Source of the DNA: Deltaproteobacteria bacterium
Lineage (GTDB): Bacteria > Desulfobacterota > Syntrophia > Syntrophales > Smithellaceae
Direction: 5' to 3'
Assembly: GCA_019136325.1 (NCBI GenBank)
Contig: JAGVUJ010000163.1
Span: 1-21,141, forward strand
Length of the DNA stretch: 21,141 bases
In this document: positions 2,070 to 18,558 of the stretch, piece after piece
Layout of the letters: every line of letters begins with the position of its first letter
Position numbering within the stretch: position 1 is the first letter of the stretch
Position numbers and translations under genes: made by a program
The notes under the pieces: generated by a model
The model's database searches: none
The model's input: only the letters and a program-made list of their open reading frames with translations
What the model was told of the DNA's origin: nothing

Positions 2070-2092
2070 TATACTGACCGGGATAAGAAATT

Positions 2093-3282: not shown

Positions 3283-3342
3283 TATTATCTTGACAATAAT
3301 AATAAATTATGGAGAATCTTCATTATCTTAAATCCTGATAAT
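3283..3342 (+). promoter_or_regulatory. Candidate promoter/operator at the left border of the defence block
   Basis: A perfect TTGACA (3290-3295) is centred in a small inverted repeat, TATTAT (3283-3288)/ATAATA (3296-3301). A second inverted repeat, ATTATC (3322-3327)/GATAAT (3337-3342), lies just before the RBS of the first small gene. The -10 matching TTGACA is poor (GAGAAT around 3312-3317). TATTAT at 3283, preceded by TGG, could itself be an extended -10. The arrangement resembles a repressor-controlled promoter but is only suggestive. The rest of the 318-base gap (3038-3282) holds a 62-codon open frame on the minus strand with no good coding signs, and otherwise nothing I recognise. Confidence 0.35.
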
Positions 3343-3355
3343 CTGAGGGGGCAAT

Positions 3356-3622
3356 ATGAATATACAAAAGCTGTACGAAGCTTTGAATACGGATGAACAG
3401 AATTCTGCTCTGGGCATCATTTGCGGAGAGCTGGAAAATCAGGGATACTCCGTTGCCATAGATGCCATCCCGGTAACATCGGAAGGTTTCTTTGATGGCA
3501 AGCATGCGGCAATGGAAGAAAAAATTGGACCATATCGGTTTGCATTGAACAAGAACGGGAAAGAAGAGCAGATATTCACTATTGAGTTTACCGACTATCA
3601 TGAATTTATTATCAAACAATAA
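3356..3622 (+). CDS. Hypothetical small protein (88 aa)
   Basis: The ATG at 3356 follows GAGGGGG with good spacing. The protein is a soluble, mixed alpha/beta 88-mer without membrane segments or recognisable catalytic motifs; the C-terminal half (GPYRFALNKNGKEEQIFTIE) looks like paired beta strands. It is the first gene of the rightward AT-rich block, 43 bases before the next small gene. I do not recognise the family. Position suggests an accessory or regulatory protein of the defence cargo, or an independent small gene carried at its edge. Confidence 0.6.
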   Translation: MNIQKLYEALNTDEQNSALGIICGELENQGYSVAIDAIPVTSEGFFDGKHAAMEEKIGPYRFALNKNGKEEQIFTIEFTDYHEFIIKQ

Positions 3623-3665
3623 CCGGTCTGAACTAAGTTAACGATCAGGGAAAGGGAGGTAACCC

Positions 3666-3998
3666 ATGACTGATTATACAAAAAAAGCTTTGGAATGTGA
3701 TTATGAAGGCTTCGTGGAAAGCCTCATCAAAATGGTTGATGACGTGATCATCAGCAAGAAAATCCCTCTGCGGGAAGCAGCGGAAACAATTATTGATGAA
3801 GCTTTTTATCAACTTCGGGAACATAAGGGAGCGCTGGACAAGCTGATGCAGGATGCCAACGCAAACCTGGAACCACCCTGCAAAGATGACCGGGAATTGG
3901 AAGCCCACACATTTGATGCGGTTGTCGATGAGATCCACCGGGATGAGATTTATATATCAGGTAAAACTGGTACGTTGCCGGATCAGAATAGAATTTGA
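3666..3998 (+). CDS. Hypothetical small protein (110 aa), mostly helical
   Basis: The ATG at 3666 follows a strong GGGAGG ribosome-binding sequence. The product is acidic and mostly helical up to about residue 70 (EGFVESLIKMVDDVIISKK, then REAAETIIDEAFYQLREHKG), followed by an irregular tail. No catalytic motif, signal peptide or membrane segment is visible and I do not recognise it. It lies between another small unknown gene and vsr, with about 70 bases before vsr. It could be part of the defence operon or a separate two-gene unit with its upstream neighbour. Confidence 0.65.
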   Translation: MTDYTKKALECDYEGFVESLIKMVDDVIISKKIPLREAAETIIDEAFYQLREHKGALDKLMQDANANLEPPCKDDRELEAHTFDAVVDEIHRDEIYISGKTGTLPDQNRI

Positions 3999-4067
3999 GA
4001 GAACCATGTTTTTTGTCTGGAAGCAGCAATAAATGAGTAATAAACATTTTATAACTTGAAAACGCAT

Positions 4068-4490
4068 ATGCCACGAACCGATGTTCATGATGAAAAAACC
4101 AGAAGCTATAATATGTCACGGATCCGGAGCAAAGACACAAAACCGGAGATTCTTGTCAGAAAATTTCTTTTCTCGAAGGGTTTCAGATACAAGCTTCATG
4201 ATAAAACTTTACCCGGGAAACCTGATCTTACATTTCCGAAATATAAGACTGTTGTGTTCATCCACGGCTGCTTCTGGCACGGACATACAGACTGCAAGTA
4301 TTTCGTTGTCCCAAAAACACGCACGGAATGGTGGAAAGCAAAAATTAAACGAAATAAGCAGCTCGATGATGAAAATAGTGTAAAGTTAAAAAGGATGGGT
4401 TGGAAAATTATAACAATATTTGAATGCACATTAAGACCAAAATTCAGAAACAAAACGTTGCAGCTTCTGGCGATGAGGCTTGTAAAATGA
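4068..4490 (+). CDS. vsr: Very short patch repair (Vsr) endonuclease
   Basis: Vsr nicks DNA 5' of a T in T:G mismatches made when 5-methylcytosine deaminates, and so protects methylated sites from mutation. The 140 residues are full length for the family. Clear hallmarks are TRSYNMSRIRSKDTKPE at 11-27, LPGKPDL with the catalytic Asp53, IHGCFWHGH with His66 and His71, and FEC near the end. The ATG at 4068 gives the usual Vsr N-terminus; a TTG at 4056 in frame is less likely. No ribosome-binding sequence is visible, but a TATAAC at 4050-4055 could be a -10 that yields a nearly leaderless message (weak). Its TGA overlaps the ATG of the methyltransferase by 4 bases, so the two are translationally coupled. 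This is a standard Vsr/C5-methylase pairing. Confidence 0.95.
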   Translation: MPRTDVHDEKTRSYNMSRIRSKDTKPEILVRKFLFSKGFRYKLHDKTLPGKPDLTFPKYKTVVFIHGCFWHGHTDCKYFVVPKTRTEWWKAKIKRNKQLDDENSVKLKRMGWKIITIFECTLRPKFRNKTLQLLAMRLVK

Positions 4491-5731
4491 GATATATTGA
4501 TTTGTTTGCGGGGGCTGGAGGTTTTTCGGAAGGTTTTAAAAGGGCTGGCTTTGAGCCAATCGCGCATGTCGAAGTCGATTTGGCTGCTTGTTTTACACTG
4601 AAAACAAGGCTTGCCTATTTTTACCTGATAGAAAATGACAAAATAGACGTTTATATCCAGTATCTCAGCGGAACTATTAGCAGGGAGCAACTATATTCAC
4701 ACATACCTTCCCGCATCCTTCAGCAAGTAATAAATCTTCCAATATCAAACAAAAACAATCCAAAAATATTTCAAATTATAGATGAGCTGAAAGGACACAA
4801 CAAAGTCGATGTTATTGTTGGCGGTCCGCCGTGCCAGGCATATTCTCTGGTTGGAAGAGCACGCGATAAAAACGGGATGAAGGGTGACCATCGTAATTAT
4901 CTTTATATTCAGTACGGGAGATTTCTGAAAAAGTATTCACCTAAGGTATTTGTTTTTGAAAATGTGCTTGGATTATTGTCAGCCCAAGAAGGAAAATATT
5001 TCAGAAACATTCAGCGTTATTTCAGACACCTAGGATATATCGTTAAACCAGTGATTGTAAATGCAAAAGAATTTGGCGTGCTCCAGAACAGGCGGCGAGT
5101 GATTATAATAGGATATCAGAAAGATATCCATGTGCCTGTTAATGAGTTTGTAAATGGCAACAGTTGTAATTATACAGTTAAATCGATATTCCAAGATCTG
5201 CCGGCAATAAATGCCGGTGGTGGTAAAGATAAATTTTTAAACTATACTACAGATATTAATGATTATTTACGTTCTGCAAAAATTAGAAATGGCATAGGCG
5301 TCCTAACGCAGCATGTATCTAGGCCGCACACGGAACAGGACAAAGAAATATACAAAATTACTATCGATAAATGGGAAAGATACCAGGAGCGTCTTGACTA
5401 CAACGATCTTCCCGAAAGACTACAAAGTCACAAAAACAGAAAATCATTTCTGGACCGGTTCAAAATTGTTGCTGATGATCTGCACTGGTCACAGACCGTA
5501 GTCGCGCATATTGCAAAGGACGGTCACTACTACATTCATCCTGATATAAAACAAAATCGGTCGATATCAGTGAGGGAAGCTGCAAGATTGCAATCCTTTC
5601 CGGACGATTTCTATTTTGAAGGAGTAAAAGAGGGGCATAACAGAACCAGTGCGTTCAGACAGATAGGCAATGCAGTGCCGCCGCTGATGGCAGAAAATAT
5701 TGCAAACAAGGTTGCCGAGTATTTAAAATAA
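4487..5731 (+). CDS. DNA (cytosine-5) methyltransferase, DISARM drmMII-like
   Basis: This 414-residue C5-methyltransferase starts at the ATG overlapping the vsr stop; the start fits because motif I begins at residue 4 (IDLFAGAGGFSEGF). Other motifs are IV with catalytic Cys116 (GGPPCQAYS), VI (FENV, 157-160), VIII (QNRRRV, 200-205), IX (REAARLQSFPDDF) and X (RQIGNAVPPLMAEN). The variable target-recognition region lies between VIII and IX. An unusually long stretch of about 55 residues between the acidic motif II region (VEVDLAA) and motif IV is rich in Ile, Asn and Lys. All catalytic motifs are intact, so it should methylate cytosine at an unknown site. In class 2 DISARM the 5mC methylase (DrmMII) marks self DNA; the position here next to DrmA/DrmB homologues supports that role, though a stand-alone methylase with Vsr is possible. 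Confidence 0.93.
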   Translation: MRYIDLFAGAGGFSEGFKRAGFEPIAHVEVDLAACFTLKTRLAYFYLIENDKIDVYIQYLSGTISREQLYSHIPSRILQQVINLPISNKNNPKIFQIIDELKGHNKVDVIVGGPPCQAYSLVGRARDKNGMKGDHRNYLYIQYGRFLKKYSPKVFVFENVLGLLSAQEGKYFRNIQRYFRHLGYIVKPVIVNAKEFGVLQNRRRVIIIGYQKDIHVPVNEFVNGNSCNYTVKSIFQDLPAINAGGGKDKFLNYTTDINDYLRSAKIRNGIGVLTQHVSRPHTEQDKEIYKITIDKWERYQERLDYNDLPERLQSHKNRKSFLDRFKIVADDLHWSQTVVAHIAKDGHYYIHPDIKQNRSISVREAARLQSFPDDFYFEGVKEGHNRTSAFRQIGNAVPPLMAENIANKVAEYLK

Positions 5732-5738
5732 ATCAGTG

Positions 5739-5798
5739 AAACAATAATCATCACTTGTCACGCTATAATTCTTGCAGCGTAAAAAGTGATTATTGTTT
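5739..5798 (+). promoter_or_regulatory. Long inverted repeat enclosing a TATAAT box, between methyltransferase and downstream operon
   Basis: Left arm 5739-5756 (AAACAATAATCATCACTT) pairs with right arm 5784-5798 (AAGTGATTATTGTTT), apart from a 3-base insertion. An inner pair ACGCT (5760-5764)/AGCGT (5776-5780) extends the symmetry. The loop holds TATAAT at 5764-5769, but no convincing -35 is present. It begins 7 bases after the methyltransferase stop, and the GTG start candidate of the next gene falls inside the right arm. Possible roles are an operator-covered internal promoter, or an RNA stem-loop that limits read-through from the methylase into the effector genes. Confidence 0.55.
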
Positions 5799-6769
5799 GC
5801 GATAGTCAGGATAATATTCGCATGCAATTTTCTGAAGAAAATGAGAAATATCACGATATTCCAGAATGGGCCGAGTTCCTCATTATGTTTGGTGCATGGT
5901 GGCCACAAACACAGTACAATAAGCGCAGAATAGCCATCATTTCAATGCCCTGTGATTCCGCTGCAGCAGGGTTAGTCACACTTGGTGCTATGATCAGATT
6001 TCTCGAGCAACCTGAGGCAAATGACTTCAGCCAGCATCTCCATAGAATAAGAAATGAGAGAAGTAGGATATTGATTTACCGTAAATATCCAAATTGGACG
6101 TTTCGCTATGACGGCAGAGATGGAGGCTACGATATGATTATGCAAATAAAAAAATCCGGCAACAATTGTAGCCGCCCCCCGCTGCGTACAATATTTCATT
6201 TCAAAGATGTATGTTTTCAGGGTGAACCATTTATAGAAGATATCATTGGGCACGAATTGCCATACGGCACAATCTATAACGCTCTGGTATGCAACAAAGT
6301 GGATATTCTGAAAGATAATATGAGAAAAACCGATTCCTCAGTCTGTTTGGCAGGACGTAACATGGGCGAAACTAAGACACGTGATGTTTTGTCAACAATT
6401 CAATTCAGCAATGGCATAATCACCGCTAGCCTTGATCAATTGCTGTCTGTGCATAACTGGGCTCGTGAAAAAATATCCCGTGTTTCATTCTACAATACCA
6501 GAACCAGAAAAAAAGATCGTCCTACAGCACCACCCCGTCTCGTTGTTACAGATGGCGACAGTGCTTTTCTTACGGTTTTGGATGACAGAAATTTATTTAG
6601 CAAAAGTGATATTATCGCGACAATTGACAGAACATTGGAACGTGACAAATTGGAAGCAATTACAAAAAAGTTACAAGATATGTCTCAATGGTATGTCAGG
6701 GACGATAATCGTCCCAAGGACACGTCTGTACCAAAAGGTATTTCGCTGGCAATCTGGAAGGAAAGATAA
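5786..6769 (+). CDS. Unknown defence-operon protein X (327 aa)
   Basis: I do not recognise this protein. It starts at GTG 5786 or, more conservatively, at ATG 5822 (315 aa); the GTG lies in an inverted repeat and lacks a ribosome-binding sequence, while the ATG has AGGA at a long spacing. Visible features are a Trp-rich segment EWAEFLIMFGAWWPQ (28-42), then IAIISMPCDSAAAGLVTLGA (49-68), a beta strand plus Ala/Gly-rich helix typical of a nucleotide-binding or Rossmann-like core, and later RLVVTDGDSAFL. There is no P-loop, nuclease triad, signal peptide or membrane helix. It ends 2 bases before the next unknown gene, so the two are surely co-expressed. Together they total about 820 residues, which raises the untested idea that X plus Y correspond to a split DrmE-like protein. 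Function unknown. Confidence 0.8.
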   Translation: MIIVCDSQDNIRMQFSEENEKYHDIPEWAEFLIMFGAWWPQTQYNKRRIAIISMPCDSAAAGLVTLGAMIRFLEQPEANDFSQHLHRIRNERSRILIYRKYPNWTFRYDGRDGGYDMIMQIKKSGNNCSRPPLRTIFHFKDVCFQGEPFIEDIIGHELPYGTIYNALVCNKVDILKDNMRKTDSSVCLAGRNMGETKTRDVLSTIQFSNGIITASLDQLLSVHNWAREKISRVSFYNTRTRKKDRPTAPPRLVVTDGDSAFLTVLDDRNLFSKSDIIATIDRTLERDKLEAITKKLQDMSQWYVRDDNRPKDTSVPKGISLAIWKER

Positions 6770-6771
6770 AA

Positions 6772-8262
6772 ATGGCAGTTACAACTTCTGCAATATTCGA
6801 TTGCCTGAAAGCACAGGATAAATTCATCATTGAGCGGCACGAAGTTGCATCTTATAATTTCAGCGTCCTTCGCCAAAATTTAAGACTGATCATAAAGAAT
6901 TTGCATGAGTGTGACGCTTACGCAACAGAGATTTCCAATACGCTGCGCATAAAACTGTCTGAGTGGTTAACAGTACCTGTCCCCTTTGATGCAGAAATGG
7001 TCAACGCCATAACCAGCCTTGGTAGTCAATATGCAGTTACCAATCGATGGGGGAGGGATATTGGCGCTGCTTATGAAGCAGCGCTGAATGCAGCCAACAG
7101 GCTTTGTCAAAATGAAAATCCAATTCGTTACGAGATTCTGAGGGTAATTGAAGATCTGAAGGTTCATGGTCAAAAATTCAAAATCTTTTGCCATAGACTC
7201 GCGCAACCTCATTTCGTATCAGTTATCCATTCAATTTATGACTCCATTGATCCGGACATCTTTATTCATTCATGCAGGGACTATCGTCAGGTCATGCCTT
7301 TTGATGTTCTTATAAAGGTCGGTCCTCTGCGGTCCCGTGGGTGGGGAGGTTCGCCAGATGGTCTGCTTACCGCACCGCGTTTTTCAACTCTTGCTCATTT
7401 TGTTTGGTCCGGATGTACAGATGAGCAGGGTTTTGGCCTCGACCCTGCTTCAGGTGCTGTCAATATTGGAGGAGATATTTCTCATGCACAGATGCCCGCC
7501 AAAACCACAACATCGTTTGGTATATCTTGGATATCGAATACAAAAAAAATTGGGAATAATGATGATGAAAACGGGCTACCATTAATTGATGAAGATGAAT
7601 TTCAGGTATTCCAGTCACTGATTCAATCCCATGACAAACGTCGCACCATACTTCTGCAACTTGATAACCCAATTTTGGGCGAGATAGATATGCCAGAATT
7701 ACGTGCCAAAGACGGGACACTGAGCCCAATATGGAAACAGAGATTAATTACTGAATGCAAGAGAGATAAAAATCGTCTTTGCGAAAAACTTTTTGACAGC
7801 GGCATTGAATTATTGTCGCTCCACTCGCGTGTAAACGATTGGTGCAAAGCCACAACTACTGTGATTCCTGCACCTCAAAAGGCTGAGCACTTCAGAATTC
7901 TCATTAATGTTTTGGGTATATATTATGAGCAACCTGGTGGTGAGCAGAGACATCGACCCCAGTGGTGGCAATATGCATGGAAGGAAATACAACGCTCCCG
8001 CGGTGAAGCAATTTCAGAAGGTCGATTTGGGCAGGAAATTAAAGAAGAAAAAATTGATGCCCTCCTAAATGATTTACACACAGAGATCGGAAGCAAATGT
8101 AGAATTGATAATCATTTCGTTATAGAAATACCGTCAAACGAAGAACTGGAAGGAAAGTTACTTCTTTTAAAGGTCAGTTCTGTTGAAGACGGATTCCTTG
8201 CCCCTGACACGGCACTAAAAAAAATTTGCGACCTTAGTGAGTTTGAACAATGGCGCGTATGA
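6772..8262 (+). CDS. Unknown defence-operon protein Y (496 aa)
   Basis: The ATG at 6772 follows GGAAGGAAAG and lies 2 bases after the previous stop; the end overlaps the NERD-helicase gene by 13 bases. The protein is soluble with no transmembrane segment and no motif I can name. The N-terminal 160 residues are mostly helical. A conspicuous Gly/Arg-rich patch, GPLRSRGWGGSPDGLL at 184-199, is followed by FSTLAHFVWSGCTDEQGFG and looks like a conserved active or binding site. The C-terminal 130 residues are charged. No Walker motif and no HxK pair of a phospholipase-D nuclease (DrmC) are visible. Its place between protein X and the nuclease-helicase makes it an integral part of the system. Function unknown. 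Confidence 0.82.
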   Translation: MAVTTSAIFDCLKAQDKFIIERHEVASYNFSVLRQNLRLIIKNLHECDAYATEISNTLRIKLSEWLTVPVPFDAEMVNAITSLGSQYAVTNRWGRDIGAAYEAALNAANRLCQNENPIRYEILRVIEDLKVHGQKFKIFCHRLAQPHFVSVIHSIYDSIDPDIFIHSCRDYRQVMPFDVLIKVGPLRSRGWGGSPDGLLTAPRFSTLAHFVWSGCTDEQGFGLDPASGAVNIGGDISHAQMPAKTTTSFGISWISNTKKIGNNDDENGLPLIDEDEFQVFQSLIQSHDKRRTILLQLDNPILGEIDMPELRAKDGTLSPIWKQRLITECKRDKNRLCEKLFDSGIELLSLHSRVNDWCKATTTVIPAPQKAEHFRILINVLGIYYEQPGGEQRHRPQWWQYAWKEIQRSRGEAISEGRFGQEIKEEKIDALLNDLHTEIGSKCRIDNHFVIEIPSNEELEGKLLLLKVSSVEDGFLAPDTALKKICDLSEFEQWRV

Positions 8263-9980
8263 TACCATCTATCATGGATGATCGCACCCCTTCCGGCGAA
8301 AGAGATGTTTTTAGCATGCTTGCTGCCGGACCTGATGACTGGGTGATAATGCATTCGCTTGATCTTGCACCCTGGAACCGGGGATTGCGGACGGAGATTG
8401 ACTTTGTTGTTATTGTCCCTGATTGTGGTATTCTTTGCATTGAAGTCAAGTCGCATTCAAGCATAACATTTGATGGCGCTTGTTGGACCCCGCCGGAAAT
8501 CAAACGTTCACCATTCAAGCAGGCAGCTGATGGCCGGCATGCTTTTTATCGTCGCCTGCGTGATATAGCACCACAATTTCGGACTGTTCCGGTTGTGCAT
8601 ATGTGCATTTTCCCGAACGCACCATTTCATTTACAGATCAATATGTCCACACAACAATGGGAGTTGATGGATAACCGCGTCTTCAGAACCTTTAAAGATT
8701 CGTCTGTCTTCTGTAGGGACATAAAATTAAGAATTGCGGAAAGCATTGATGCAGATGGAAAACTTTGCCGGCTCAAAAATCCTCTTTCTGAGAGTCAGGT
8801 TCAATCGATCGTCAATTACTGCCTGCCAGTGCATAAATACCACCCTAATGCACGTGAGGAAATCATGTTACGTGAACAGACGATTGAACGCATATTGCGA
8901 GATCAGCAAAAACCTGTTCTCAAACTCGCATGTGCTAATAACAGGATAATTGTCTCTGGCGGTGCAGGAACCGGAAAGACACTTATTGCAATGGAATTGG
9001 CAAGGCGAAAGGCTGAATCGGGACAAAGAGTAGCCTTGCTTTGTTTCAATCAGCTTGTTGGTCAATGGATGAAAGAACAAATGGAACGAATCAGACCGAC
9101 TTTACCTAATCTGGTCGTCGGCCGATCTATCCAGATCATGGCTGAACTGACAGGGTTGGACATCCCGGAGACACCTGATGGCAATTACTGGAATAACGTA
9201 TTGCCTCTTAAACTGGAAGAAAAATTGACTGATCCGGAGATAAGCGTAATTGCACCTTTTGACTATCTTGTGCTCGATGAAACACAGGACATTCTTCTAC
9301 GCCCCGCACTCTGGCAGTGCTTAATACACCTTCTGAACGGTGGAATAAGAGAGGGAAAATATGCACTATTTGGTGATTTTGAACATCAGGTATTTGGTGA
9401 ACGCGAACTGTTAAAAAAAGAGTTGGACACAATATTGCGGGATGCTCAACCAGCACGGTGGAAATTATCGGAAAACTGCCGGAACTATAGCATAATAGGT
9501 GAAACTGCCGTGCAGCTCAGTGGATTTGATGAGAAAATATATACAGGATACATGCGTCAGGGTGGCAGCATTGCCAACTACAACATTCACTTTTATGCCA
9601 CAGAAGATGAACAGGCGCGCAAACTCTATGATCTGCTGAGAGAGTTTAAACAGCAGGGTTACCGACCGGAAGAAATAACAATTTTATCGTTTTCAGCAGA
9701 GAGATGTGCTGCAAAAAGTCAGCAGATGCAGGAATATAATATCCGTCCGGCATGGCAACAAGGCCGATTTACTCATTATTGCACTGTTCATGCCTTCAAG
9801 GGGTTGGAGAACAAGATAATCATTCTTACAGATGTATCTCTTGGTGAAGCAGAGTTTCATCGTGATCTGTTCTATACCGGGATGACGCGGGCAACAGAAT
9901 CAGTCCGTGTCTTATGTAATATTAAATGCCAGGAAACATTACTCAGGTGGCTGACAAAAGGAGGGCTTACCCATGTCTGA
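8250..9980 (+). CDS. NERD nuclease-domain / UvrD-like superfamily 1 helicase fusion
   Basis: This 576-residue protein has two parts. Residues about 12-110 are a NERD domain (nuclease-related, PD-(D/E)XK-like fold): TEIDFVVIV with Asp51, then CIEVK with Glu65 and Lys67, so the catalytic set looks intact. Residues about 200-575 are a compact SF1 helicase/ATPase with Walker A GGAGTGKT (237-244), Walker B VLDETQD (341-347), GDFEHQ (375-380), TVHAFKGLE (512-520) and YTGMTRA (542-548). The family is often found in phage-defence loci as a predicted DNA-cutting, ATP-driven enzyme. The start overlaps the upstream gene by 13 bases; ATG 8259 is an alternative. The end overlaps the DrmA-like gene by 8 bases. 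It may supply the nuclease activity otherwise missing from this DISARM-like set (inference). Confidence 0.92.
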   Translation: MARMIPSIMDDRTPSGERDVFSMLAAGPDDWVIMHSLDLAPWNRGLRTEIDFVVIVPDCGILCIEVKSHSSITFDGACWTPPEIKRSPFKQAADGRHAFYRRLRDIAPQFRTVPVVHMCIFPNAPFHLQINMSTQQWELMDNRVFRTFKDSSVFCRDIKLRIAESIDADGKLCRLKNPLSESQVQSIVNYCLPVHKYHPNAREEIMLREQTIERILRDQQKPVLKLACANNRIIVSGGAGTGKTLIAMELARRKAESGQRVALLCFNQLVGQWMKEQMERIRPTLPNLVVGRSIQIMAELTGLDIPETPDGNYWNNVLPLKLEEKLTDPEISVIAPFDYLVLDETQDILLRPALWQCLIHLLNGGIREGKYALFGDFEHQVFGERELLKKELDTILRDAQPARWKLSENCRNYSIIGETAVQLSGFDEKIYTGYMRQGGSIANYNIHFYATEDEQARKLYDLLREFKQQGYRPEEITILSFSAERCAAKSQQMQEYNIRPAWQQGRFTHYCTVHAFKGLENKIIILTDVSLGEAEFHRDLFYTGMTRATESVRVLCNIKCQETLLRWLTKGGLTHV

Positions 9981-12900
9981 AAGATCTGAACTCATTGCTT
10001 GTATCCGGAGTGAAATTGTGGGTCCTTCACGCCCTCCCGAAACGCAGTCAATAGCAATATTCCACGAGAGAGTCTTTGCGGATCCTGTCTCACTGCGCCG
10101 GGGTTCCCTTGGATGGCAACCGACTGCGGAAAGCACAATTGAAGAAATACTTTATTATGACAGGGAAACACCACATCGAAAATATGGTGCCGGTCTTTTG
10201 CATCCTGAAGGTATAACCCTTGTAAGTCCTGTCTCTCCCGACATATCGGCATCCAATACTACTGACACATTAGGTATTGATCCTGATGAGAGCGAAACTC
10301 TGAGTAACAACTCTGAAGAAAATATAGCGGATACCAATGTGCGCGAGAGCGCAGATTCCGATACTGAAGATGATTTTGAAGTCACAAGTGCCGATGTTCG
10401 GCATCCATCAACCATCGGCCTAACTTTCTGTGCAAAGTTAGGCGCTAATGGCAGGATAATTGTTCAATTGCCACAAAACCGGCGCTTTTCCTGGCAGGAT
10501 GAAGCAAATCAACCATTCCCTTTGAACGGCAGGTATGAGTATGCCACGCGCCAGTGGACTGATGAACAAGGCCAGACAAGAGAATCGCCAATGTGGCGCC
10601 GTCGGCCAGCGTTATTGCCAAATACAACAATCATCATTGATCGTGATGAACTCCTTACAGGAAAACCGATTTTCAGAAACGTGTCAATGCCGGAGGCATC
10701 ACCAATAGAACTGCGTCTTGACATTTTTCCGCGGCAAATTAAAAATCAATACGATGTTTGGCTGGTGACAGCTGTTCTCCGCAATAAAAGTTCGATTAAT
10801 GGGCCAATAGACCACCGTGAACAGGTACTGTACCAAACCTATTTTGAGGTATTCGTTGAAGATGGTTTGTTGGAAAAGTATCCCGAAAGCCCACGACCAT
10901 TCTCGCAACTTGATTCTGACGAGCAATCGCTGGCATTACTATATCGTGAATCTGCAACATGGGCTATTGGTCACGGGTGTGCCGCCGGCTGGGATGCCGA
11001 ACCCGATCAGGCGCCGGATAAAATATTTACAGATGTCATGCCAGCTGTGCAAATACCAAGTATAACTCCCGACATTAAAAAAAATGGGTGTGACGAACAA
11101 ATCCGACTATCCATGCGGTTACTTGCAACATTGTCTGATGATATGCAAGGACCAGCATGGCAATCTCTTACAAACCTCGCAGATGAGTACGCCAGATGGA
11201 TACAACAAAATCGTGATGAAGCGAATTTATTAACGCCTGAGCTTCGGGCAGTTGCAATCCGCCACCTGGATGTCTGCAATGATTGTCTCTGTCGAATCAA
11301 TGCCGGTATTACTGCACTCCGTAATGATCAGAATATCAGAACAGCTTTCAAACTAGCAAACCTGTCTATGCTTCTCCAGCAAATCACAACCAAGCAGTTG
11401 TCCAAGCGTCCGTTGCGCTGGGATCAGAGCAGCAATCTGGTTATCCCGGATGGCGATTATAAGACACCTTGGGATGTATATCAGCAGGGAAATGAAAATT
11501 CTGACCTAGGTCTTTGGCGTGCATTCCAGATTGCATTTCTTTTGATGTCAATTGAAGGTGTTAGTAATGGTCATGCGCCTGACCGCGAAATTGTCGACCT
11601 GATTTGGTTTCCAACAGGTGGTGGCAAGACGGAAGCATACCTTGCAGTTATGGCTTTTTATATGTTTCATCAGCGATTGTTGATGCAAGATAGCGATAAA
11701 ACACCTAAACGTGATGGCACAAATGTACTTATGCGATATACCCTGAGAATGCTGACCACGCAGCAGTTCCAGCGCGCAGCTAGTCTTATATGTGCGATGG
11801 AGTTCCTGCGACGAAATCCCTTGCAGCATGGTGTGGGTGAAATTCCAGGAAAACGCTTTTCACTTGGATTATGGATTGGCTCAGCCGCTTCGCCAAATGA
11901 TGTTGAGCAGGCAAAAAAGGATGTTGGCAAATTTCGTCAGGGGCATATCCAGGGTAATCCCCTTATTTTAACTGAGTGTCCATGGTGCAGGGCTGAAATT
12001 GGCCGTTATAAAGCAAACACGCCACCGCGTGGTGTGCGACAGAATCAATGGAACAACCTGCGGACCAGGGGGATCAGTGATGTTAATGCCGAAGGTCCCT
12101 TGCTGCACTGTACTGATGGCCGCTGTGCTTTTGGTCTGGAGAATTGGGAACATTGGATACCTGTTGAGGTTATTGATGAGCGTATCTATAAACATCCACC
12201 ATCAATGGTGATTGCAACTGCTGATAAATTTGCAATGATAGCTTACAGGCCAGATGCCGGTGCAATCTTCGGGCGTAATACCGTGAACAATGAAAAGTGT
12301 CAAACATATGTGCCGCCAGGTTTGATAATTCAGGATGAACTTCATCTTATCTCAGGCCCATTAGGTACAATGTATGCTCTGTACGAAGGTATTTTTGAAA
12401 GGTTATGCTCATATCGAATTAATGCCAGATGGATAAAACCAAAACTGATCGCCTCCACGGCAACTATTCGCGGTGCTGCTGACCAGGTCAAATCGCTATA
12501 TGCACGTGATCAGATGCAACTGTTTCCAAGCCCTGGCTTAAAGATGGGGGATTCCTTCTTCGGTAAATATGCCCGGGATGAAAGGGGAAATCTGCTTCCT
12601 GGACGACTTTATCTCGGTATTCATGCAAATGATTATGGTTCTGTTCTGACCACGCAGGTTCGCGCCTTTTCATCCGCACTGTTTCGTCCTTACGCTTTCG
12701 CTGCAAGTAGTAAAGATCCATGGTGGACTTTACTAACTTTTTATAACAGTATCCGGGAACTTGCCGGTGCAAAAACGCTGTTTGATTCCGATATCCGATC
12801 CAGATTGAAATTTCTTTTTAACCGGGAAAACTATTCGGCCGATAATCGCAGGAACCTCAGGATAGTAGAAGAACTGACAAGTCGTCTATCTCAGACAGAA

Positions 12901-13662
12901 ATCGTCGACATGATGGACAGATTGTCCATAAGATATGATGCCGATCCCGGCAAAGTTATTGATGCGTGTTTGGCATCCAGTATTATAGAGGTTGGAGTAG
13001 ACATTGACCGGCTTTCACTAATGGGTGTCGTGGGCCAGCCGAAAACCACAGCGCAATATATTCAGGTCACCGGTCGTGTGGGTCGTCGCTGGTGGGAACG
13101 CCCGGGATTGATCATCATGATTTACAATCCATCCAAGAGTCGCGACAGGTCACACTATGAACAATTTCACAGCTACCATAGAAGACTGTATGAACGTGTG
13201 GAACCGACTTCCGTGACTCCATTTGCGCTATCAGCTATTCAAAGAGCTTTGCCGGGTGCCTTGATCGCATGGGCGCGGCAGCATGGCACTGCAAATGTCC
13301 AGAACCTGTCCGTCTATGAAAACGAGATTGATGCAGCACATGAGCTGCTTCAGGAACGCTGCCAAATCGTTCAAAATACAGCAGACATGGCAAGATCACT
13401 TCAGGAACTTACGAGAGTTCGAGATGAACTGAAAGCAAAATGGGGATTAAATCCTCAGATGTGGGAACACTTTCCACCTGATGTAAACGGAGAATACCTT
13501 ATACTATGGCCTGGACAATATGCAACGCTTATCCAGAAGCAACGAGGGATCGTTGTTGCGAGCAGCATGCGCCAAGTTGACAGCAATGCAGAACTGACTA
13601 TAACTCAGGGTTATGCCCTTGCAAATACGCAGAGTCAAACACAGCAAGGAGGACAAGAATGA
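9973..13662 (+). CDS. drmA: DrmA-like DISARM helicase (YprA/MrfA-type superfamily 2)
   Basis: This is a 1229-residue helicase whose ATG follows GGAGGG, overlapping the NERD gene end. The N-terminal half (1-530) has no named fold visible beyond an acidic linker at about 85-145. The helicase core has Walker A FPTGGGKT (about 546-553), DELH (788-791), STAT (828-831), EVGVDID, and motif VI QVTGRVGR (1031-1038). A zinc-ribbon candidate, Cys669/Cys672 and Cys713/Cys718, is inserted between motif I and motif II. The LIWFPTGGGKTEAYL signature and the following DUF1998 partner are characteristic of DrmA. In DISARM, DrmA works with DrmB to bind and translocate on incoming DNA. The helicase branch also includes Druantia- and Dpd-linked members, so the precise class (DISARM or a related system) needs a phylogeny. 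It is translationally coupled to the next gene. Confidence 0.88.
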   Translation: MSERSELIACIRSEIVGPSRPPETQSIAIFHERVFADPVSLRRGSLGWQPTAESTIEEILYYDRETPHRKYGAGLLHPEGITLVSPVSPDISASNTTDTLGIDPDESETLSNNSEENIADTNVRESADSDTEDDFEVTSADVRHPSTIGLTFCAKLGANGRIIVQLPQNRRFSWQDEANQPFPLNGRYEYATRQWTDEQGQTRESPMWRRRPALLPNTTIIIDRDELLTGKPIFRNVSMPEASPIELRLDIFPRQIKNQYDVWLVTAVLRNKSSINGPIDHREQVLYQTYFEVFVEDGLLEKYPESPRPFSQLDSDEQSLALLYRESATWAIGHGCAAGWDAEPDQAPDKIFTDVMPAVQIPSITPDIKKNGCDEQIRLSMRLLATLSDDMQGPAWQSLTNLADEYARWIQQNRDEANLLTPELRAVAIRHLDVCNDCLCRINAGITALRNDQNIRTAFKLANLSMLLQQITTKQLSKRPLRWDQSSNLVIPDGDYKTPWDVYQQGNENSDLGLWRAFQIAFLLMSIEGVSNGHAPDREIVDLIWFPTGGGKTEAYLAVMAFYMFHQRLLMQDSDKTPKRDGTNVLMRYTLRMLTTQQFQRAASLICAMEFLRRNPLQHGVGEIPGKRFSLGLWIGSAASPNDVEQAKKDVGKFRQGHIQGNPLILTECPWCRAEIGRYKANTPPRGVRQNQWNNLRTRGISDVNAEGPLLHCTDGRCAFGLENWEHWIPVEVIDERIYKHPPSMVIATADKFAMIAYRPDAGAIFGRNTVNNEKCQTYVPPGLIIQDELHLISGPLGTMYALYEGIFERLCSYRINARWIKPKLIASTATIRGAADQVKSLYARDQMQLFPSPGLKMGDSFFGKYARDERGNLLPGRLYLGIHANDYGSVLTTQVRAFSSALFRPYAFAASSKDPWWTLLTFYNSIRELAGAKTLFDSDIRSRLKFLFNRENYSADNRRNLRIVEELTSRLSQTEIVDMMDRLSIRYDADPGKVIDACLASSIIEVGVDIDRLSLMGVVGQPKTTAQYIQVTGRVGRRWWERPGLIIMIYNPSKSRDRSHYEQFHSYHRRLYERVEPTSVTPFALSAIQRALPGALIAWARQHGTANVQNLSVYENEIDAAHELLQERCQIVQNTADMARSLQELTRVRDELKAKWGLNPQMWEHFPPDVNGEYLILWPGQYATLIQKQRGIVVASSMRQVDSNAELTITQGYALANTQSQTQQGGQE

Positions 13663-15611
13663 ACAGAGAAGTGCGAATAGGACAACTGATTGCGCCATTC
13701 GGCCCGGGTGCTATCTACACTGACCGTCAGGGCACCCCTCTTGTTGTTTGCGGCCTCGATCATTGGTTTAAGGTTATGGATCACGTCAATGGCTTGGTGC
13801 AGTGTCAAAAACCGGAAGAATTCCAAAAGTTCGAACCCCGACTGGCGGCACTTTTGCGAGTTGATCGTTTCTGCAGACCACCAGATTTTCGATCAGCCCG
13901 GCAGGGGCAACAAGCGCCACCGAATGCATGGCTTTATACACCGGCACAGAGATTTCCCCGGTGGTATCGGCATTCCAAAACCGGTGAGATGAAAAAGTTT
14001 AACCTAAGCACTGAAATTCTTGAAAGATCCCAAGGGGGAAGATGGCTTCCGGTCAGGTTTATTGCAGTGTGTACAGGTGGCCACTTGTGCGAATTCCCTT
14101 GGAAACAGTGGATTGGGTGCCAATGCCCGGGCGATGGTAACCTATACTTGACTGATCGAGGTGGTTCCGAACTCAGCAGTATCCGTGTTGAATGCCGCAC
14201 ATGCCCTGCGGGATCAAGTGGGAGAAAGGGAAGGACGCTTGCCGGTACCACAGTAAAGCCGGATTTGGAACATGGTGAAGAAAGCGCATTTCAGCAAGCC
14301 GGAATCGGTTGTCCCGGCGAGCGGCCATGGCTCGGTGAAGGTGCAAACGAGCAGGATTGCAGGCATCCATTGGTCGGTGCGCTTATAAATCAAACCAATC
14401 TTTATTTTCCGAAGACTATATCAGCTATACTTCTGCCAGATTTGCAACAACAGGACTCCACAATAACGCAACTCAGGAATGCGATTGAGCAGGACGCGGG
14501 ATCATGTGGAATAGCGAGAACCCTTTGGAATATGAACATGCGGCCTGGGGCAGTCGCATTGGTACAATCCTCTCTCATTAATCGTGGTATTAATTCCGAT
14601 CCAAACCAGATAGAACGAGCGTTGGAAAGCCTTTTCTCATCTGCTGCGGCAGGCATGCCTTGCGCAACCCAACCAGCTATTCCGGATTCTGATCTGCTTG
14701 CTTTCAGACGTGCCGAATTCAACATTATCCGAAGTGAAGTAAACGATATCGAGAATATTCCCAATCTGAGGGTAATTCCCGCTGATGTTCCCACAGACTT
14801 TACTGAATGGTTTGCTAGGATAAATCTTGTTGAGCGTTTGCGGGAAACCCGCGTTTTTTACGGATTTGACCGACTGGAGCAGAATCCACGGCCATTGGAT
14901 GCCATGCCTGATTCAGCAATGAGGCAGTTGTTTCGTAATCCGCCGGTGCAAAGACAGGAACAATGGCTGCCAGCGATTGAAGTCTTTGGTGAAGGCATTT
15001 ATATCGAGCTAAGTGAACCAAAAATAGAAGAATGGCAATTTCGAAATGACCTATGGCTGACTGATCGTTTGAATGATGGTTTCATTACAAGACTTTCAGG
15101 TGTCTTTCAGACTCTTGCACCAATTAATGGTGCAGACAAGAAATGGGCATCGAAGTATCTTCTCATTCATAGTCTTGCACATATTTTGATAAACCAGCTG
15201 GTTTTCGAGTGTGGATATAGCACAGCCTCCCTGCGTGAGCGGCTCTACATCTGTTCTGACAATCACGCACCCATGGCAGGCATACTGATCTATACCGCTG
15301 CAGGAGACTCTGAGGGAACATTGGGGGGGCTGGTTCGCTTGGGAAGACCAGATCGGTTGGGCCCTATTATCCGACGCGCATTGGGTCGGGCATCATGGTG
15401 TTCTGCTGATCCAGTCTGTTCAGAAAATCTCGGTGGCCAAGGATCACGCTTGGTTAATCTTGCAGCCTGTCACGCATGCACATTGCTTCCCGAGACATCA
15501 TGTGAAACTATTAACCAAGGACTGGACCGGGCTATGATTGTAGGTACACCGGACAATCGTCAGCCCGGGTTTATGGCGGATTTGCTCGATGAAGTATACT
15601 CATTAGAATAA
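13659..15611 (+). CDS. drmB: DrmB-like DISARM protein with DUF1998 domain
   Basis: A 650-residue protein starting at an ATG that overlaps the DrmA stop by 4 bases (ATGA), after a strong AAGGAGG. The N-terminus reads IGQLIAPFGPGAIYTD (7-22), the usual opening of DrmB proteins. Cysteines at 138, 144, 154, 156, 179 and 182 look like a zinc-binding cluster. The C-terminal DUF1998/MrfA-like domain, about 495-630, includes LLIHSLAHILINQL and a second cysteine-rich region (SWCSADPVC, then AACHACTLLPETSC). DrmB is the obligate partner of DrmA in DISARM; the pair forms the DNA-engaging core. It is the last gene of the operon: a 142-base gap follows and the next gene is convergent. No DrmC (phospholipase-D) gene follows, unlike canonical DISARM. 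Confidence 0.9.
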   Translation: MNREVRIGQLIAPFGPGAIYTDRQGTPLVVCGLDHWFKVMDHVNGLVQCQKPEEFQKFEPRLAALLRVDRFCRPPDFRSARQGQQAPPNAWLYTPAQRFPRWYRHSKTGEMKKFNLSTEILERSQGGRWLPVRFIAVCTGGHLCEFPWKQWIGCQCPGDGNLYLTDRGGSELSSIRVECRTCPAGSSGRKGRTLAGTTVKPDLEHGEESAFQQAGIGCPGERPWLGEGANEQDCRHPLVGALINQTNLYFPKTISAILLPDLQQQDSTITQLRNAIEQDAGSCGIARTLWNMNMRPGAVALVQSSLINRGINSDPNQIERALESLFSSAAAGMPCATQPAIPDSDLLAFRRAEFNIIRSEVNDIENIPNLRVIPADVPTDFTEWFARINLVERLRETRVFYGFDRLEQNPRPLDAMPDSAMRQLFRNPPVQRQEQWLPAIEVFGEGIYIELSEPKIEEWQFRNDLWLTDRLNDGFITRLSGVFQTLAPINGADKKWASKYLLIHSLAHILINQLVFECGYSTASLRERLYICSDNHAPMAGILIYTAAGDSEGTLGGLVRLGRPDRLGPIIRRALGRASWCSADPVCSENLGGQGSRLVNLAACHACTLLPETSCETINQGLDRAMIVGTPDNRQPGFMADLLDEVYSLE

Positions 15612-15659
15612 TACAAATATTGGGGAATGAGGTTTGGAAAAAAACAATGGCAGGGATAC

Positions 15660-15680
15660 TGGACCGATTAAAATCGGCCA
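15660..15680 (+). terminator. Weak stem-loop after the DISARM-like operon
   Basis: TGGaCCGAT and ATCGGCCA form an 8-bp stem with one bulged A and a TAAA loop, 49 bases after the DrmB stop. There is no following T-run, so it is a poor intrinsic terminator. It may mark the transcript end or act with Rho. The rest of the 142-base convergent gap is AT-rich and shows nothing else. Confidence 0.25.
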
Positions 15681-15753
15681 TAGTCTTGTAAAAATAAAAA
15701 CTGTCGGGTAGACGCATAAAATATATAAATAATCATTGATCGGCAGGACAATC

Positions 15754-18558
15754 TCACAGCACCGCAACATTCTCCCTGTCCAGATTCAGCATGTACCCCA
15801 TCCGGGGGCGGGTGACGATCATGTTTTTCAACCCGGCGGGATCGATGCCGGGAAAGCCTTTGATGACTTTCCTGATGCCGTCGAGCAGCTTGCGCTTATG
15901 GTCCGTGATCTGCTGCTCATAGGGCCGCGAGGCATCGTCATTGCCTTCGGATTCCGGCCAGAGCCGTTCATAAATCTGCGCCCTGGTGATCACTGCTTTG
16001 GGATTGCCGGCCAGCATCTCCAGCAGACGGAAGGACATCAGGGGCAGGATGACCTGCGCGCCCCGGTAAAAAACCAGCGCCTGCCGGACGTCCAGAAGCA
16101 GGACGGGCGGATCGGAGATAATTTCCCGCAGGTCTTTGGTCACGTTCAGCTTCGCGCACAACTCTTTTCGCTTCTGATCATCGCTGATGATTCCGGACAG
16201 GGAACAGGCGGCCGTTTCTTCCGGTTTTACCGGCATGCTTTCAGCCTTTTTTGTTACGGGTTTTCCGGCAGGCTCGCAAATGCCGTTTTCATTGGGATTC
16301 TTTTCCTCCTCTTCCCGGTAGCACCCGGCAAAGTGGCTATGAAGTTTCTCCGCCAGGCGTTTGGGCAGAAGGCGCTCCAGTTCCGCAAGCGGCAGATCGG
16401 CTATTGTTTCCGGGGTGTCATACCCTTCATGCACCAGGCGGTTGATATGGCTCCGGCCCAGGCCCCGGATGCGGATGGATGAAAGCGCCAGGCCTTTTTC
16501 AGTAATGCCGTGGATCAGGCGCTGCGACAGGCGGATCAACGCCCGGACAAAACGTTCTTCCCAGCCGGTGACCCTGGCCAGGGCGGCCAGCGTTTCCGCA
16601 AGCCAGCTGAAATCCTCCCCGACTTTCCTGATGGCTCCGCTGAAGACCTGGTAGTTTCGCTCAATGTCTTTTGTTTCAGCGGTGGAAAGCCATTCCTGCA
16701 TCATCAGCGCTTTCTTGACGGCGCGGTCCTTGTCATCCAGAAACAGATTGTCCATTTCCCAAAGGGACTGGAACAGCGGTTTGCAGTCCTCGCCGCTTTC
16801 GTAGATGATCTGCCGGAGTTCATCGCGGTGGCCGCCCCACCGGCCGTCGGGCCGTTTGAGAGAAAGGTAATTTCCCCGCGAGTCCCGACACAGCCCCAGA
16901 AGCAGCAGAACTTCCAGCTCGGAAACACGCCGGGGATCGGTATTGTTCAGAAATTTCAGGAAAAAGGCGGCCGTGTCAATCATCACGCCCTTGCCGGCGG
17001 CCACTTTGCCGGTTTCCGTGGCGGTCAGGGTGTTGCCTTTGTCCTTAACGATCAGTTTTTCCTTCAGACAGGCCTGGACGGTATCGGCAACCGCCCGGTC
17101 ATATTCGGCGTCGGTCATCTCTTTGTTCCAGACCGTTGCGGCGGTATAGGTGCTTTTCAGGAAGGTCTTGATCTCTGCTTCACTGTGGCAGATTTCCGCG
17201 GCTACCAGGTTCAGGATGTGCTTGTCCATGCTGTTTCTGTCCAGAGCAGGGGCGAAGTCTTCCAGGCTGCCGCAAGCGTAATGGTCATAGTAGAACTTGG
17301 AATTGACGAAGGAATGCGTGACGAACACCGCCCGGCCGAAATCGGAGATGTAGCCGTAACGGGCCACCCTGCCGCCCATGTTCTCGTATTCGGAAACCGT
17401 GAGGTTCACCGGCATGACGTCGCGGGTTTTGCCGAAGGTCTTCCAGCGCTTCGGGGCGATGACGGCGTTTTTCACGGGCAGATTCAACCCGACGGCCAGC
17501 GTGGAGGTGGTGCAAAGCACCCGGATTTCGCCCTGGCGGGTGTAGCGCTCGATGATGTCCCGCTCTTCCCAGGACAAATCGGCGTTGTGGACGGCGACGC
17601 CCTGTTGCAGGGTTTGCAGGAGCATCTCCCGGGAAACGCTTTCCTCCAGGGAATTCATCTCGGCCAGCGCGCCATGCGCAGGTTCAAGATCGAGCGCGCG
17701 GGTCAGCCTTCTGGCCAGCCCTTCCGTGGAGGGTTTGTCCGGCAGGAAAAAGACGGTCTGCTCCCCCAGCTTCCCGGCCAGGTGGCAGGCCGTTTCCACA
17801 TACTGGTCCATTTCCTTTTCGGATTGCAGATCAAACCAGGTCTCTTCTCCCTGTCCGCCGCTGTTGAATTCCCGGTATCTGAACTTTCCGCCGTAAAAGA
17901 CACCCTGCCGCAGTTCCACCGGACGGTTCTCTTCGACAAGGAGCGTCGCCGCGAGCCAGCGGGCCAGGGCATCGCTCTTCCCCAAGACGGCGGATAACCC
18001 GACAAGCTGCGGCCGGGCGGGATGCAGCAGGATGCGGGTCAGAAGCAGCTCCAGGGCCGGCCCCCGGTCTTCGTCGGTCATGTATTGCAGCTCATCGACC
18101 ACGACCAGGCCGACATCGCTGATGAGTGACGGCTTCTGGACCAGCAGGGCGCTGAGCTTTTCATAGACGACAATGGCGATGTGATACTTTCCCGCCAGGA
18201 TGCGCTCGTCGTATTCCCGGCGGTCGTGTGTGGAAATGACGGTGTCGATGCCCGCTTTCCGGTAGTCCTCATAAAATTGCTCGAACTTTTCTTCGGCCAG
18301 CGCCTTCATGGGCACGAGGTAGATCGCCCTGCGGCCTTTGCTGCCGTAATGGAGGGCGAGGATCTCCCCGATCAGGGTTTTTCCGGATGATGTGACGGCG
18401 GAGATCAGAAAATTGCCGCCGCGCAGGATAAGGTGGTCCCGGAACGCGCGCTCCTGGATCGGCAGGAGTTCCGCGTCGTACTTGTTCTTCAAAACATCAA
18501 TGATCTTCGGCTCCAGGCCGAAAGCTTCCAGGAGGTCGATACGCATGATGACAGACAT
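15754..18558 (-). CDS. Ski2/Hel308-like DEAD/DEAH helicase with C-terminal OmpR-type winged helix
   Basis: A 934-residue SF2 helicase. Motifs: PIQ (33-35), SAVTSSGKT (53-61), LVPMKALAEEK (81-91), VVDELQ (153-158), LSAVLG (188-193), CTTSTLAVGLNLP (349-361) and MGGRVARYG (394-402). A helix-hairpin-helix-like segment, RGLGRSHINRLVHEG, lies at about 698-712, as in Ski2/Hel308 proteins. Unexpectedly, residues about 819-925 match an OmpR/PhoB effector domain (LMSFRLLEMLAG, ITRAQIYERLWP, DHKRKLL, VTRPRMGYML), joined through a Lys/Glu-rich linker (745-790). The start is ATG 18558 or ATG 18546; an AAAGGA abuts the first. It is monocistronic and divergent from the AbiE pair. Likely roles are DNA unwinding in repair, mobile-element maintenance or defence; the winged helix may target it to DNA sites. 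GC-rich codon use resembles the flanks, not the DISARM-like block. Confidence 0.9.
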   Translation of the reverse strand: MSVIMRIDLLEAFGLEPKIIDVLKNKYDAELLPIQERAFRDHLILRGGNFLISAVTSSGKTLIGEILALHYGSKGRRAIYLVPMKALAEEKFEQFYEDYRKAGIDTVISTHDRREYDERILAGKYHIAIVVYEKLSALLVQKPSLISDVGLVVVDELQYMTDEDRGPALELLLTRILLHPARPQLVGLSAVLGKSDALARWLAATLLVEENRPVELRQGVFYGGKFRYREFNSGGQGEETWFDLQSEKEMDQYVETACHLAGKLGEQTVFFLPDKPSTEGLARRLTRALDLEPAHGALAEMNSLEESVSREMLLQTLQQGVAVHNADLSWEERDIIERYTRQGEIRVLCTTSTLAVGLNLPVKNAVIAPKRWKTFGKTRDVMPVNLTVSEYENMGGRVARYGYISDFGRAVFVTHSFVNSKFYYDHYACGSLEDFAPALDRNSMDKHILNLVAAEICHSEAEIKTFLKSTYTAATVWNKEMTDAEYDRAVADTVQACLKEKLIVKDKGNTLTATETGKVAAGKGVMIDTAAFFLKFLNNTDPRRVSELEVLLLLGLCRDSRGNYLSLKRPDGRWGGHRDELRQIIYESGEDCKPLFQSLWEMDNLFLDDKDRAVKKALMMQEWLSTAETKDIERNYQVFSGAIRKVGEDFSWLAETLAALARVTGWEERFVRALIRLSQRLIHGITEKGLALSSIRIRGLGRSHINRLVHEGYDTPETIADLPLAELERLLPKRLAEKLHSHFAGCYREEEEKNPNENGICEPAGKPVTKKAESMPVKPEETAACSLSGIISDDQKRKELCAKLNVTKDLREIISDPPVLLLDVRQALVFYRGAQVILPLMSFRLLEMLAGNPKAVITRAQIYERLWPESEGNDDASRPYEQQITDHKRKLLDGIRKVIKGFPGIDPAGLKNMIVTRPRMGYMLNLDRENVAVL

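What the first reader, a model, noticed from the sequence alone, without database searches (positions are those of the whole stretch)
4068..15611. Non-canonical DISARM-like system: Vsr, 5mC methylase, X, Y, NERD-helicase, DrmA, DrmB
DrmA, DrmB and a C5-methylase are the DISARM hallmarks, but the usual DrmC phospholipase-D gene and a single DrmE are absent. In their place are a NERD nuclease/SF1 helicase and two proteins I cannot assign. The overlapping gene ends argue that all components work together. It may be an uncharacterised DISARM subtype or a member of another YprA-helicase defence class (for example the one I recall as ARMADA; membership not tested).
Basis: partly seen in the sequence, partly recalled or inferred. 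Interest (0 to 1): 0.85.

Follow-up and report, generated by a model that had tools for sequence, protein, structure and literature searches.

The report
DISARM-type phage defence with split DrmE
This stretch of DNA most likely encodes a little-studied version of the bacterial anti-virus system DISARM, in which one known component appears to be cut into two genes and a helicase-nuclease stands where the usual nuclease would be; the same five-gene set is found in distant bacteria, but it has not been tested here.

Summary
In detail: Vsr, C5-methylase, X, Y, NERD-SF1 helicase, DrmA and DrmB form one tight operon (4068-15611). X-Y-NERD-DrmA-DrmB is a conserved unit: 11 of 11 loci found through Y keep the order as far as held DNA reaches; C5-methylase and Vsr lie nearby in 8 of 8 loci with the whole cassette, a PLD (DrmC-like) match in none. 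DrmE is not simply absent: Y is a remote homologue of its C-terminal part, via intermediates that pass Pfam's DrmE_C cut-off. X stands where DrmE's N-terminal part belongs, but no sequence match shows it. DrmA and DrmB trees put the window with other split-X/Y loci, apart from class 1. ARMADA and TALON partner genes were not seen. Models hint that X and Y are the RecA1 and RecA2 halves of a dead SF2 helicase (inferred, weak for X). Proposed mechanism: methylation protects self; DrmAB senses foreign DNA; X/Y couples it to the active-looking NERD-SF1 nuclease-helicase. A new variant of a known kind, untested. The window's Y lacks 42 residues that 124 of 125 aligned rows have.

The parts
4068..4490 (+). 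Vsr, very-short-patch mismatch endonuclease (140 aa)
   Evidence: Pfam PF03852 E 1.2e-35; TIGR00632 133.7 bits over cut-off 97.85; HGCFWHGH motif
4487..5731 (+). C5-cytosine DNA methyltransferase, DrmMII-like (ORF opens at 4424; likely start ATG 4487)
   Evidence: Pfam PF00145 E 2.2e-64; PADLOC DrmMII PDLC02649 E 2.8e-165; GGPPCQ, ENV, FAGAGG; start inferred from sequence
5739..5798 (.). inverted repeat (12-nt perfect arms, 36 nt apart) between methylase and X; possible regulatory site
   Evidence: (z -2.08; 6 of 200 shuffles fold as well); weak
5822..6769 (+). X: in the place of the N-terminal part of DrmE; RecA1-like model, no P-loop pattern, DG instead of DE at the Walker-B-like strand
   Evidence: 64 homologues; profile to intermediate X proteins E 3.3e-11 over 312 columns; motifs; model. 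Homology to DrmE by sequence not shown
6772..8262 (+). Y: remote homologue of the C-terminal part of DrmE; RecA2-like model followed by a DrmE_C-like region; this copy lacks 42 residues
   Evidence: 282 homologues; profile to intermediate Y proteins E 2.5e-7 over 407 columns; intermediates pass Pfam DrmE_C; model of relative P0008; gap
8250..9980 (+). NERD nuclease domain fused to an SF1 (UvrD/RecD-like) helicase; likely effector
   Evidence: Pfam PF08378 E 1.5e-13, PF13538; E-x-D...E-x-K; GGAGTGKT and DETQ
9973..13662 (+). DrmA, YprA-family SF2 helicase (1229 aa)
   Evidence: NCBIfam DrmAS 832 bits, PADLOC DrmA E 6.6e-201; 7s9v E 2.7e-132; FPTGGGKT, DELH, QVTGRVGR
13659..15611 (+). DrmB, DUF1998/MZB zinc-binding partner of DrmA (650 aa)
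   Evidence: NCBIfam DrmB 382 bits (cut-off 240), Pfam MZB E 1.1e-9; Cys cluster; 7s9v chain B E 3.3e-68

Best explanation
An anti-phage system of the DISARM family, related to its DrmE-bearing branch and not to class 1, in which DrmE is represented by two genes (X and Y) and DrmC is replaced by a NERD-SF1 helicase-nuclease. Proposed working: the C5-methylase marks host DNA, and Vsr repairs the T:G mismatches that arise when 5-methylcytosine deaminates (inferred from family knowledge). DrmA-DrmB is the ATP-driven sensor/translocase, loading on unmodified DNA with single-stranded ends as shown for Serratia DrmAB in PMC9142583 (inferred here). X and Y together form a helicase-like, ATPase-dead scaffold that binds DNA and/or couples DrmAB to the NERD-SF1 protein (inferred from models and missing motifs). 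The NERD-SF1 protein unwinds and cuts the invader (inferred from intact motifs). Shown here: gene content, conserved order and overlaps, motif integrity, Y's relation to DrmE, phylogenetic placement. Not shown: any activity.
For: Order X-Y-NERD-DrmA-DrmB in 11 of 11 loci as far as held DNA reaches; C5-methylase and Vsr in 8 of 8 loci with the whole cassette, PLD in 0 of 11 loci and not in the window, by a four-sequence profile. Y profile to intermediates E 2.5e-7 and X profile to intermediates E 3.3e-11, against E>=0.09 for seven control profiles apiece. Intermediate Y proteins match DrmE_fam (below its cut-off except L032) and four pass Pfam DrmE_C. A Y profile that includes intermediates finds the annotated Halobacterium DrmE (E 4.9e-8) and a Haliscomenobacter protein with DrmE_C (5.1e-8); the best ORF of 1997 that is neither Y nor DrmE-like scores 0.47. 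DrmA tree: window clade 100/100, joint clade with other split loci 100/99, class 1 apart 96/94; DrmB tree joint clade 98/94. The trees pointed to a Deinococcus psychrotolerans plasmid, where X-like, Y-like and NERD genes were then found upstream of DrmA. NERD and DrmA motifs intact.
Confidence: 0.74

Rival explanations
1. X and Y are not DrmE but two DISARM accessory proteins of their own; the Y-DrmE similarity is only a shared C-terminal domain.
For: X has no DrmE match by any model or profile; direct Y versus fused-DrmE comparison is weak; the strongest matches lie in the C-terminal region.
Against: DrmE_fam matches the Nostoc Y-like protein over positions 393-802 of 838, which leaves an X-sized part; Y aligns to those intermediates over 407 columns; X comes directly before Y in the 11 loci and in Deinococcus; a metagenomic protein joins X's C-terminal half to Y (P0123).
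Confidence: 0.19
2. Two neighbours in a defence island: a methylase/Vsr pair, and an independent five-gene helicase system that needs no methylation.
For: The methylase is poorly conserved (24-34% identity to the window's in 7 loci, against 53-75% for DrmA and DrmB) and its place and strand change.
Against: C5-methylase and Vsr are near the cassette in 8 of 8 loci with the whole cassette and in the window; the best PADLOC model is DrmMII. No random-locus control was run.
Confidence: 0.2
3. A member of ARMADA or TALON.
For: YprA-family helicase with Vsr nearby (ARMADA) or with NERD (TALON).
Against: DrmB is separate from the helicase, Vsr is not fused, and no BrxHII-like, PglX-like, TPR-CSD or TBP protein was seen among the 17 window proteins scanned; DrmA's best models are DISARM DrmA.
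Confidence: 0.03
4. A decayed, inactive copy of the system in this genome.
For: Window Y lacks 42 residues that 124 of 125 aligned rows have.
Against: All seven frames are open and the motifs of DrmA, NERD and methylase intact; the gap keeps the frame.
Confidence: 0.2

Closest known systems
DISARM type/class II (DrmMII, DrmE, DrmA, DrmB, DrmC; PADLOC definition, PMC9252829 passage)
   Same: DrmA, separate DrmB, C5-methylase, a DrmE-related component upstream of DrmA
   Different: DrmE represented by two genes that current models do not recognise; no DrmC seen; NERD-SF1 gene between the DrmE part and DrmA; Vsr added
DISARM type/class I (DrmD, DrmMI, DrmA, DrmB, DrmC)
   Same: DrmA-DrmB core
   Different: no DrmD or DrmMI among scanned window proteins; DrmA and DrmB in another clade
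Fused DrmE-NERD-DrmA-DrmB loci found here (L031, L034)
   Same: same order, with Vsr and C5-methylase
   Different: DrmE in one protein (901 aa in L034; part of 1792 aa in L031)
TALON and ARMADA (PMC12458937)
   Same: YprA-family helicase; NERD or Vsr nuclease associated
   Different: single-gene helicase with fused DUF1998 part, and other partner genes
NERD-helicase proteins of other defence systems (PADLOC RTasNERD-Hel, C3a187)
   Same: same NERD plus SF1 helicase architecture (E 1.1e-26 and 3.1e-16)
   Different: partner genes

Membership tests
DISARM (any) | DrmA, YprA-family helicase | tested here: met
   PADLOC DrmA E 6.6e-201; NCBIfam DrmAS 832 bits, below the cut-off of 950
DISARM (any) | separate DrmB (DUF1998/MZB) gene | tested here: met
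   NCBIfam DrmB 382 bits over cut-off 240
DISARM (any) | DNA methyltransferase in the operon | tested here: met
   C5-methylase at 4487-5731
DISARM (any) | protects against phage | not testable with these tools
   bench only
DISARM type II as PADLOC defines it (PMC9252829 passage) | DrmMII | tested here: met
   PDLC02649 E 2.8e-165
DISARM type II as PADLOC defines it | DrmE | tested here: inconclusive
   window X and Y match no PADLOC, NCBIfam or Pfam model; Y is a remote homologue through intermediates; X not shown by sequence
DISARM type II as PADLOC defines it | DrmC (PLD nuclease) | tested here: not met
   no PLD match among 17 scanned window proteins; none in the window or 11 related loci by a four-sequence PLD profile
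DISARM type I | DrmD and DrmMI | tested here: not met
   no such match among scanned window proteins (PADLOC on the eight cassette proteins only)
[quoted passage not shown]
   not among 17 scanned window proteins; definition from PMC12458937 section 5
ARMADA | helicase fused to the OB-CON-DUF1998 part and a C-terminal Vsr domain | tested here: not met
   DrmB and Vsr are separate genes; definition from passages
TALON | ARMADA-like YprA with NERD, TPR-CSD and TBP genes | tested here: not met
   NERD present, on an SF1 helicase; no TPR-CSD or TBP among scanned window proteins
SF2 helicase fold (X plus Y) | RecA1 and RecA2 domains | tested here: inconclusive
Active SF2 helicase (X plus Y) | P-loop, DExx at the Walker-B strand, motif VI | tested here: not met
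   no GxxxxGK[ST] in X and no Q..GR..R in Y, 11 of 11 each; the VVxD strand of X is followed by G, not E, in 12 of 12. Patterns only; the Walker-B place is my reading of the model

The most novel reading that the evidence does not exclude
DrmE, the unexplained DISARM component, is a catalytically dead SF2 helicase of the XPF/Hef type. In one lineage its RecA1 and RecA2 halves became two proteins (X and Y) that clamp DNA and hand it from the live DrmAB helicase to a NERD-SF1 helicase-nuclease: a three-helicase machine with one dead member, deserving its own DISARM class.
Probability: 0.38. Interest if true: 0.72.

Novelty: new variant of a known kind. Interest (0 to 1): 0.55.

Why it matters
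In the passages I read, PMC9142583 leaves the role of DrmE to future work and calls DISARM's nuclease step a mystery. If X and Y are the two halves of DrmE with a dead-helicase fold, DrmE's role becomes testable (coupling, DNA binding), and a strictly linked NERD-SF1 helicase-nuclease is a concrete candidate effector. The models searched here miss X and Y, so such systems would be left out or misnamed in defence counts.

Tried and rejected
ARMADA and TALON: defining partner genes not seen. Direct profile comparison of X and Y with the fused-DrmE alignment A5: not significant; hence the route through intermediates. A forced global alignment failed. Sequence search of solved structures with X and Y profiles: nothing for X, two matches at E 0.27-0.28 for Y. 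Foldseek: no match at E<=0.001 for X or Y. Canonical DISARM_DrmE model NF038323: 0 of 299 genomes, and nothing rang in the controls, so uninformative. Viral contigs: no Y relative; flanking PD-(D/E)XK and Hel308-like proteins none either. Phage records with DrmA: none. Plasmids with a Y close to P0008: none. Repeats at the island's ends: no shared word of 12 or more between 2001-4070 and 15601-16600, one of 11. Small ORFs 3356-3622 and 3666-3998: no relative in fetched loci at E<=0.1. A first NERD pattern was too strict and missed all; relaxed. The DE pattern was too narrow and was redone.

Rows left out: plasmid loci were chosen by hand, 21 of 85 records with a DrmA match. The ORF set left out L007 (its fuller copy L045 was used), L012-L021, L027-L030 and L044. 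The DrmA tree kept ORFs of at least 900 aa, so L004, L042 and L043 fell out, and L009 and L032 have no DrmA on the held DNA. The DrmB tree left out L043 and ORFs under 560 aa.
Full report
WHAT IS THERE. The window holds seven tightly packed + strand genes from 4068 to 15611: Vsr, C5-methylase, X, Y, NERD-SF1 helicase, DrmA, DrmB. Neighbours overlap or lie 2 bases apart, except for a 90-base gap before X. Family scans name five of them and leave X and Y blank. G+C is 38-50% in 1-kb steps across the cassette against 53-59% in the flanks, which suggests acquisition from elsewhere. No whole genome is held for the window, so its host is unknown.

A CONSERVED CASSETTE. Y has 282 homologues at E<=0.001 among the 7999 candidates that were scored, X has 64 among 890. 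A scan of genome contigs with the Y alignment gave 11 loci, by record title four Chlorobiaceae, one Terriglobia, one Pyrinomonadaceae, one Verrucomicrobiales, one Gammaproteobacteria, one Gemmatimonadaceae, one Bradyrhizobium and Noviherbaspirillum galbum: five phyla by my reading. In all 11 the order is X, Y, NERD, then DrmA and DrmB as far as the held DNA reaches. Three stop early: L001 before DrmB, L004 within DrmA, L009 within NERD. A DrmB search of the 11 genomes found a match in 10, 9 of them over the cut-off; G009 had none. The Y/NERD overlap is 13 nt in the window and in all 10 loci where it was measured. C5-methylase and Vsr occur in 8 of 8 loci that hold the whole cassette, at changing places and strands; for L007 the methylase showed only on the fuller contig L045. 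The methylases are dissimilar (24-34% identity to the window's in the seven that BLAST aligned; the eighth came by profile), so methylation looks like an exchangeable module. A PLD profile built from four sequences found no DrmC-like gene in the window or in these loci.

Y IS RELATED TO DrmE. The window's DrmA led to plasmids with more distant DrmA (85 records; 21 opened, chosen by hand). In Nostoc HK-01, Priestia and Rhodococcus the genes upstream of DrmA match the Y profile (E 4.5e-10, 7.7e-4, 6.5e-5) and, in the first two, the X profile (2.9e-14, 0.0083); these E-values are for a set of 17 proteins. The Nostoc Y-like protein matches NCBIfam DrmE_fam over positions 393-802 of 838 (65 bits, cut-off 80) and passes Pfam's DrmE_C cut-off (28.2 against 27). 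Y-like proteins of L042, L033 and L032 pass it too; the Rhodococcus one does not. Profile-profile comparison links Y with the Nostoc/L033 group at E 2.5e-7 over 407 columns, and X with its counterparts at 3.3e-11 over 312 columns; seven other profiles apiece gave E>=0.09. A Y profile that includes the intermediates finds the annotated Halobacterium 'DrmE family protein' (E 4.9e-8) and a Haliscomenobacter protein with DrmE_C (5.1e-8). In a recount over 1997 ORFs of 38 sources, every ORF under 0.1 was a Y gene or a DrmE-place protein, and the best other ORF scored 0.47 (E set for 1000 sequences).

AGAINST. Of seven fused DrmE-place proteins the Y profile finds two well, L034 at 0.039, L031 at 0.61, L048 at 3.1, L053 at 13 and L046 not at all; the X profile finds none (best E 20). 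Direct comparison of Y or X with a fused-DrmE alignment is not significant. X is assigned to DrmE's N-terminal part only by gene order, by length arithmetic, and by one metagenomic protein that joins the C-terminal half of an X to a whole Y (P0123).

PHYLOGENY. In a DrmA tree of 33 rows the window and nine of its kind form a clade (100/100) that joins Nostoc, Priestia, Rhodococcus, L033 and Deinococcus psychrotolerans (100/99); class 1 rows form another (96/94). A DrmB tree of 32 rows agrees (100/100; 98/94; class 1 92/96), though Priestia there sits next to the window's clade (93/89). Several fused-DrmE rows have long branches and are unsure. Deinococcus had been unassigned because its upstream genes lie across the start of a circular record. 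Reading across it gave X-like (E 1.4e-6, over a 60-residue stretch), Y-like (8.3e-4) and NERD (1.1e-80) genes in the expected order with profiles that include the intermediates; with the plain profiles X gave 0.0033 and Y did not reach 0.01. The tree lacks the Bacillus class II operon and any ARMADA, Dpd or Druantia row. DrmE_fam searches of genomes gave 1 of 299, 3 of 247 and 0 of 149; all four loci have a NERD gene directly after the DrmE-like gene or genes (only 246 aa in L032), so NERD is not confined to the window's clade. Nostoc L022 and Priestia L025 lack NERD between Y and DrmA.

MECHANISM. Inferred: self-marking by the methylase, with Vsr guarding against 5mC deamination; DrmAB as sensor/translocase by analogy with Serratia (PMC9142583 passages); X/Y as dead-helicase coupler; NERD-SF1 as effector. 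That paper calls DrmC dispensable and the degradation step a mystery.

LITERATURE. PMC12458937 (abstract, passages, sections 5 and 26; [quoted passage not shown] the NERD mention that I saw concerns TALON, and DrmE does not occur in its main text. PMC9252829 (passages) gives PADLOC's definitions. PMC10952713, PMC11090510 and PMC10270631 (passages) do not describe this operon in what I saw. Ofir 2018 is not held and is recalled only.

VERDICT. A real, conserved DISARM variant that current models do not recognise, with a good case that Y, and probably X, is DrmE in pieces. After the recount I lowered confidence slightly (0.75 to 0.74; novel case 0.40 to 0.38), because five of seven fused proteins are not found well by the Y profile.

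Noticed in passing
window 6772-8262, junction near 7669: Y lacks a 42-residue segment present in 124 of 125 aligned rows, in frame; natural deletion or assembly error unknown.
   Followed up: partly
window 5739-5798: Inverted repeat with 12-nt perfect arms between methylase and X; folding z -2.08; possible operator or attenuator.
   Followed up: partly
window 15754-18558 (-): Hel308-like helicase with a C-terminal Trans_reg_C domain; below NCBIfam's Hel308 cut-offs.
   Followed up: partly
window 19226-20299 (+): AbiEii-type nucleotidyltransferase toxin gene near the cassette; partner not identified.
   Followed up: no
window 1-1852 (-), 2093-3037 (-), 20383-20781 (-): AAA_24 ATPase, PD-(D/E)XK nuclease, WYL regulator and SSB genes in the flanks, perhaps a mobile element or replication module; no viral relative of the nuclease found.
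   Followed up: partly
P0172, P0173, P0176: X homologues of 521-523 aa with an N-terminal extension; P0172 and P0176 gave no Pfam match over a cut-off.
   Followed up: partly
L022 7446-8387: A transposase gene sits between the X-like and Y-like genes on a Nostoc HK-01 plasmid.
   Followed up: no
L031 4613-9991: 1792-aa protein with sub-threshold N-terminal AAA matches and a DrmE-like C-terminus ahead of NERD-DrmA-DrmB.
   Followed up: partly
L039, L040, L041: Other DrmA-DrmB plasmid loci with NERD- or UvrD-type helicases in different orders, pointing to more DISARM-like variants.
   Followed up: no
L046 5913-8318, L052 5018-7525: Fused DrmE-place proteins show sub-threshold matches to Pfam Intein_splicing (E 0.01 and 0.068); perhaps a Hint-like part.
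   Followed up: no
L024/L054: A protein kinase, a PP2C phosphatase and a VWA protein lie a few kb upstream of the Deinococcus X-like gene.
   Followed up: no
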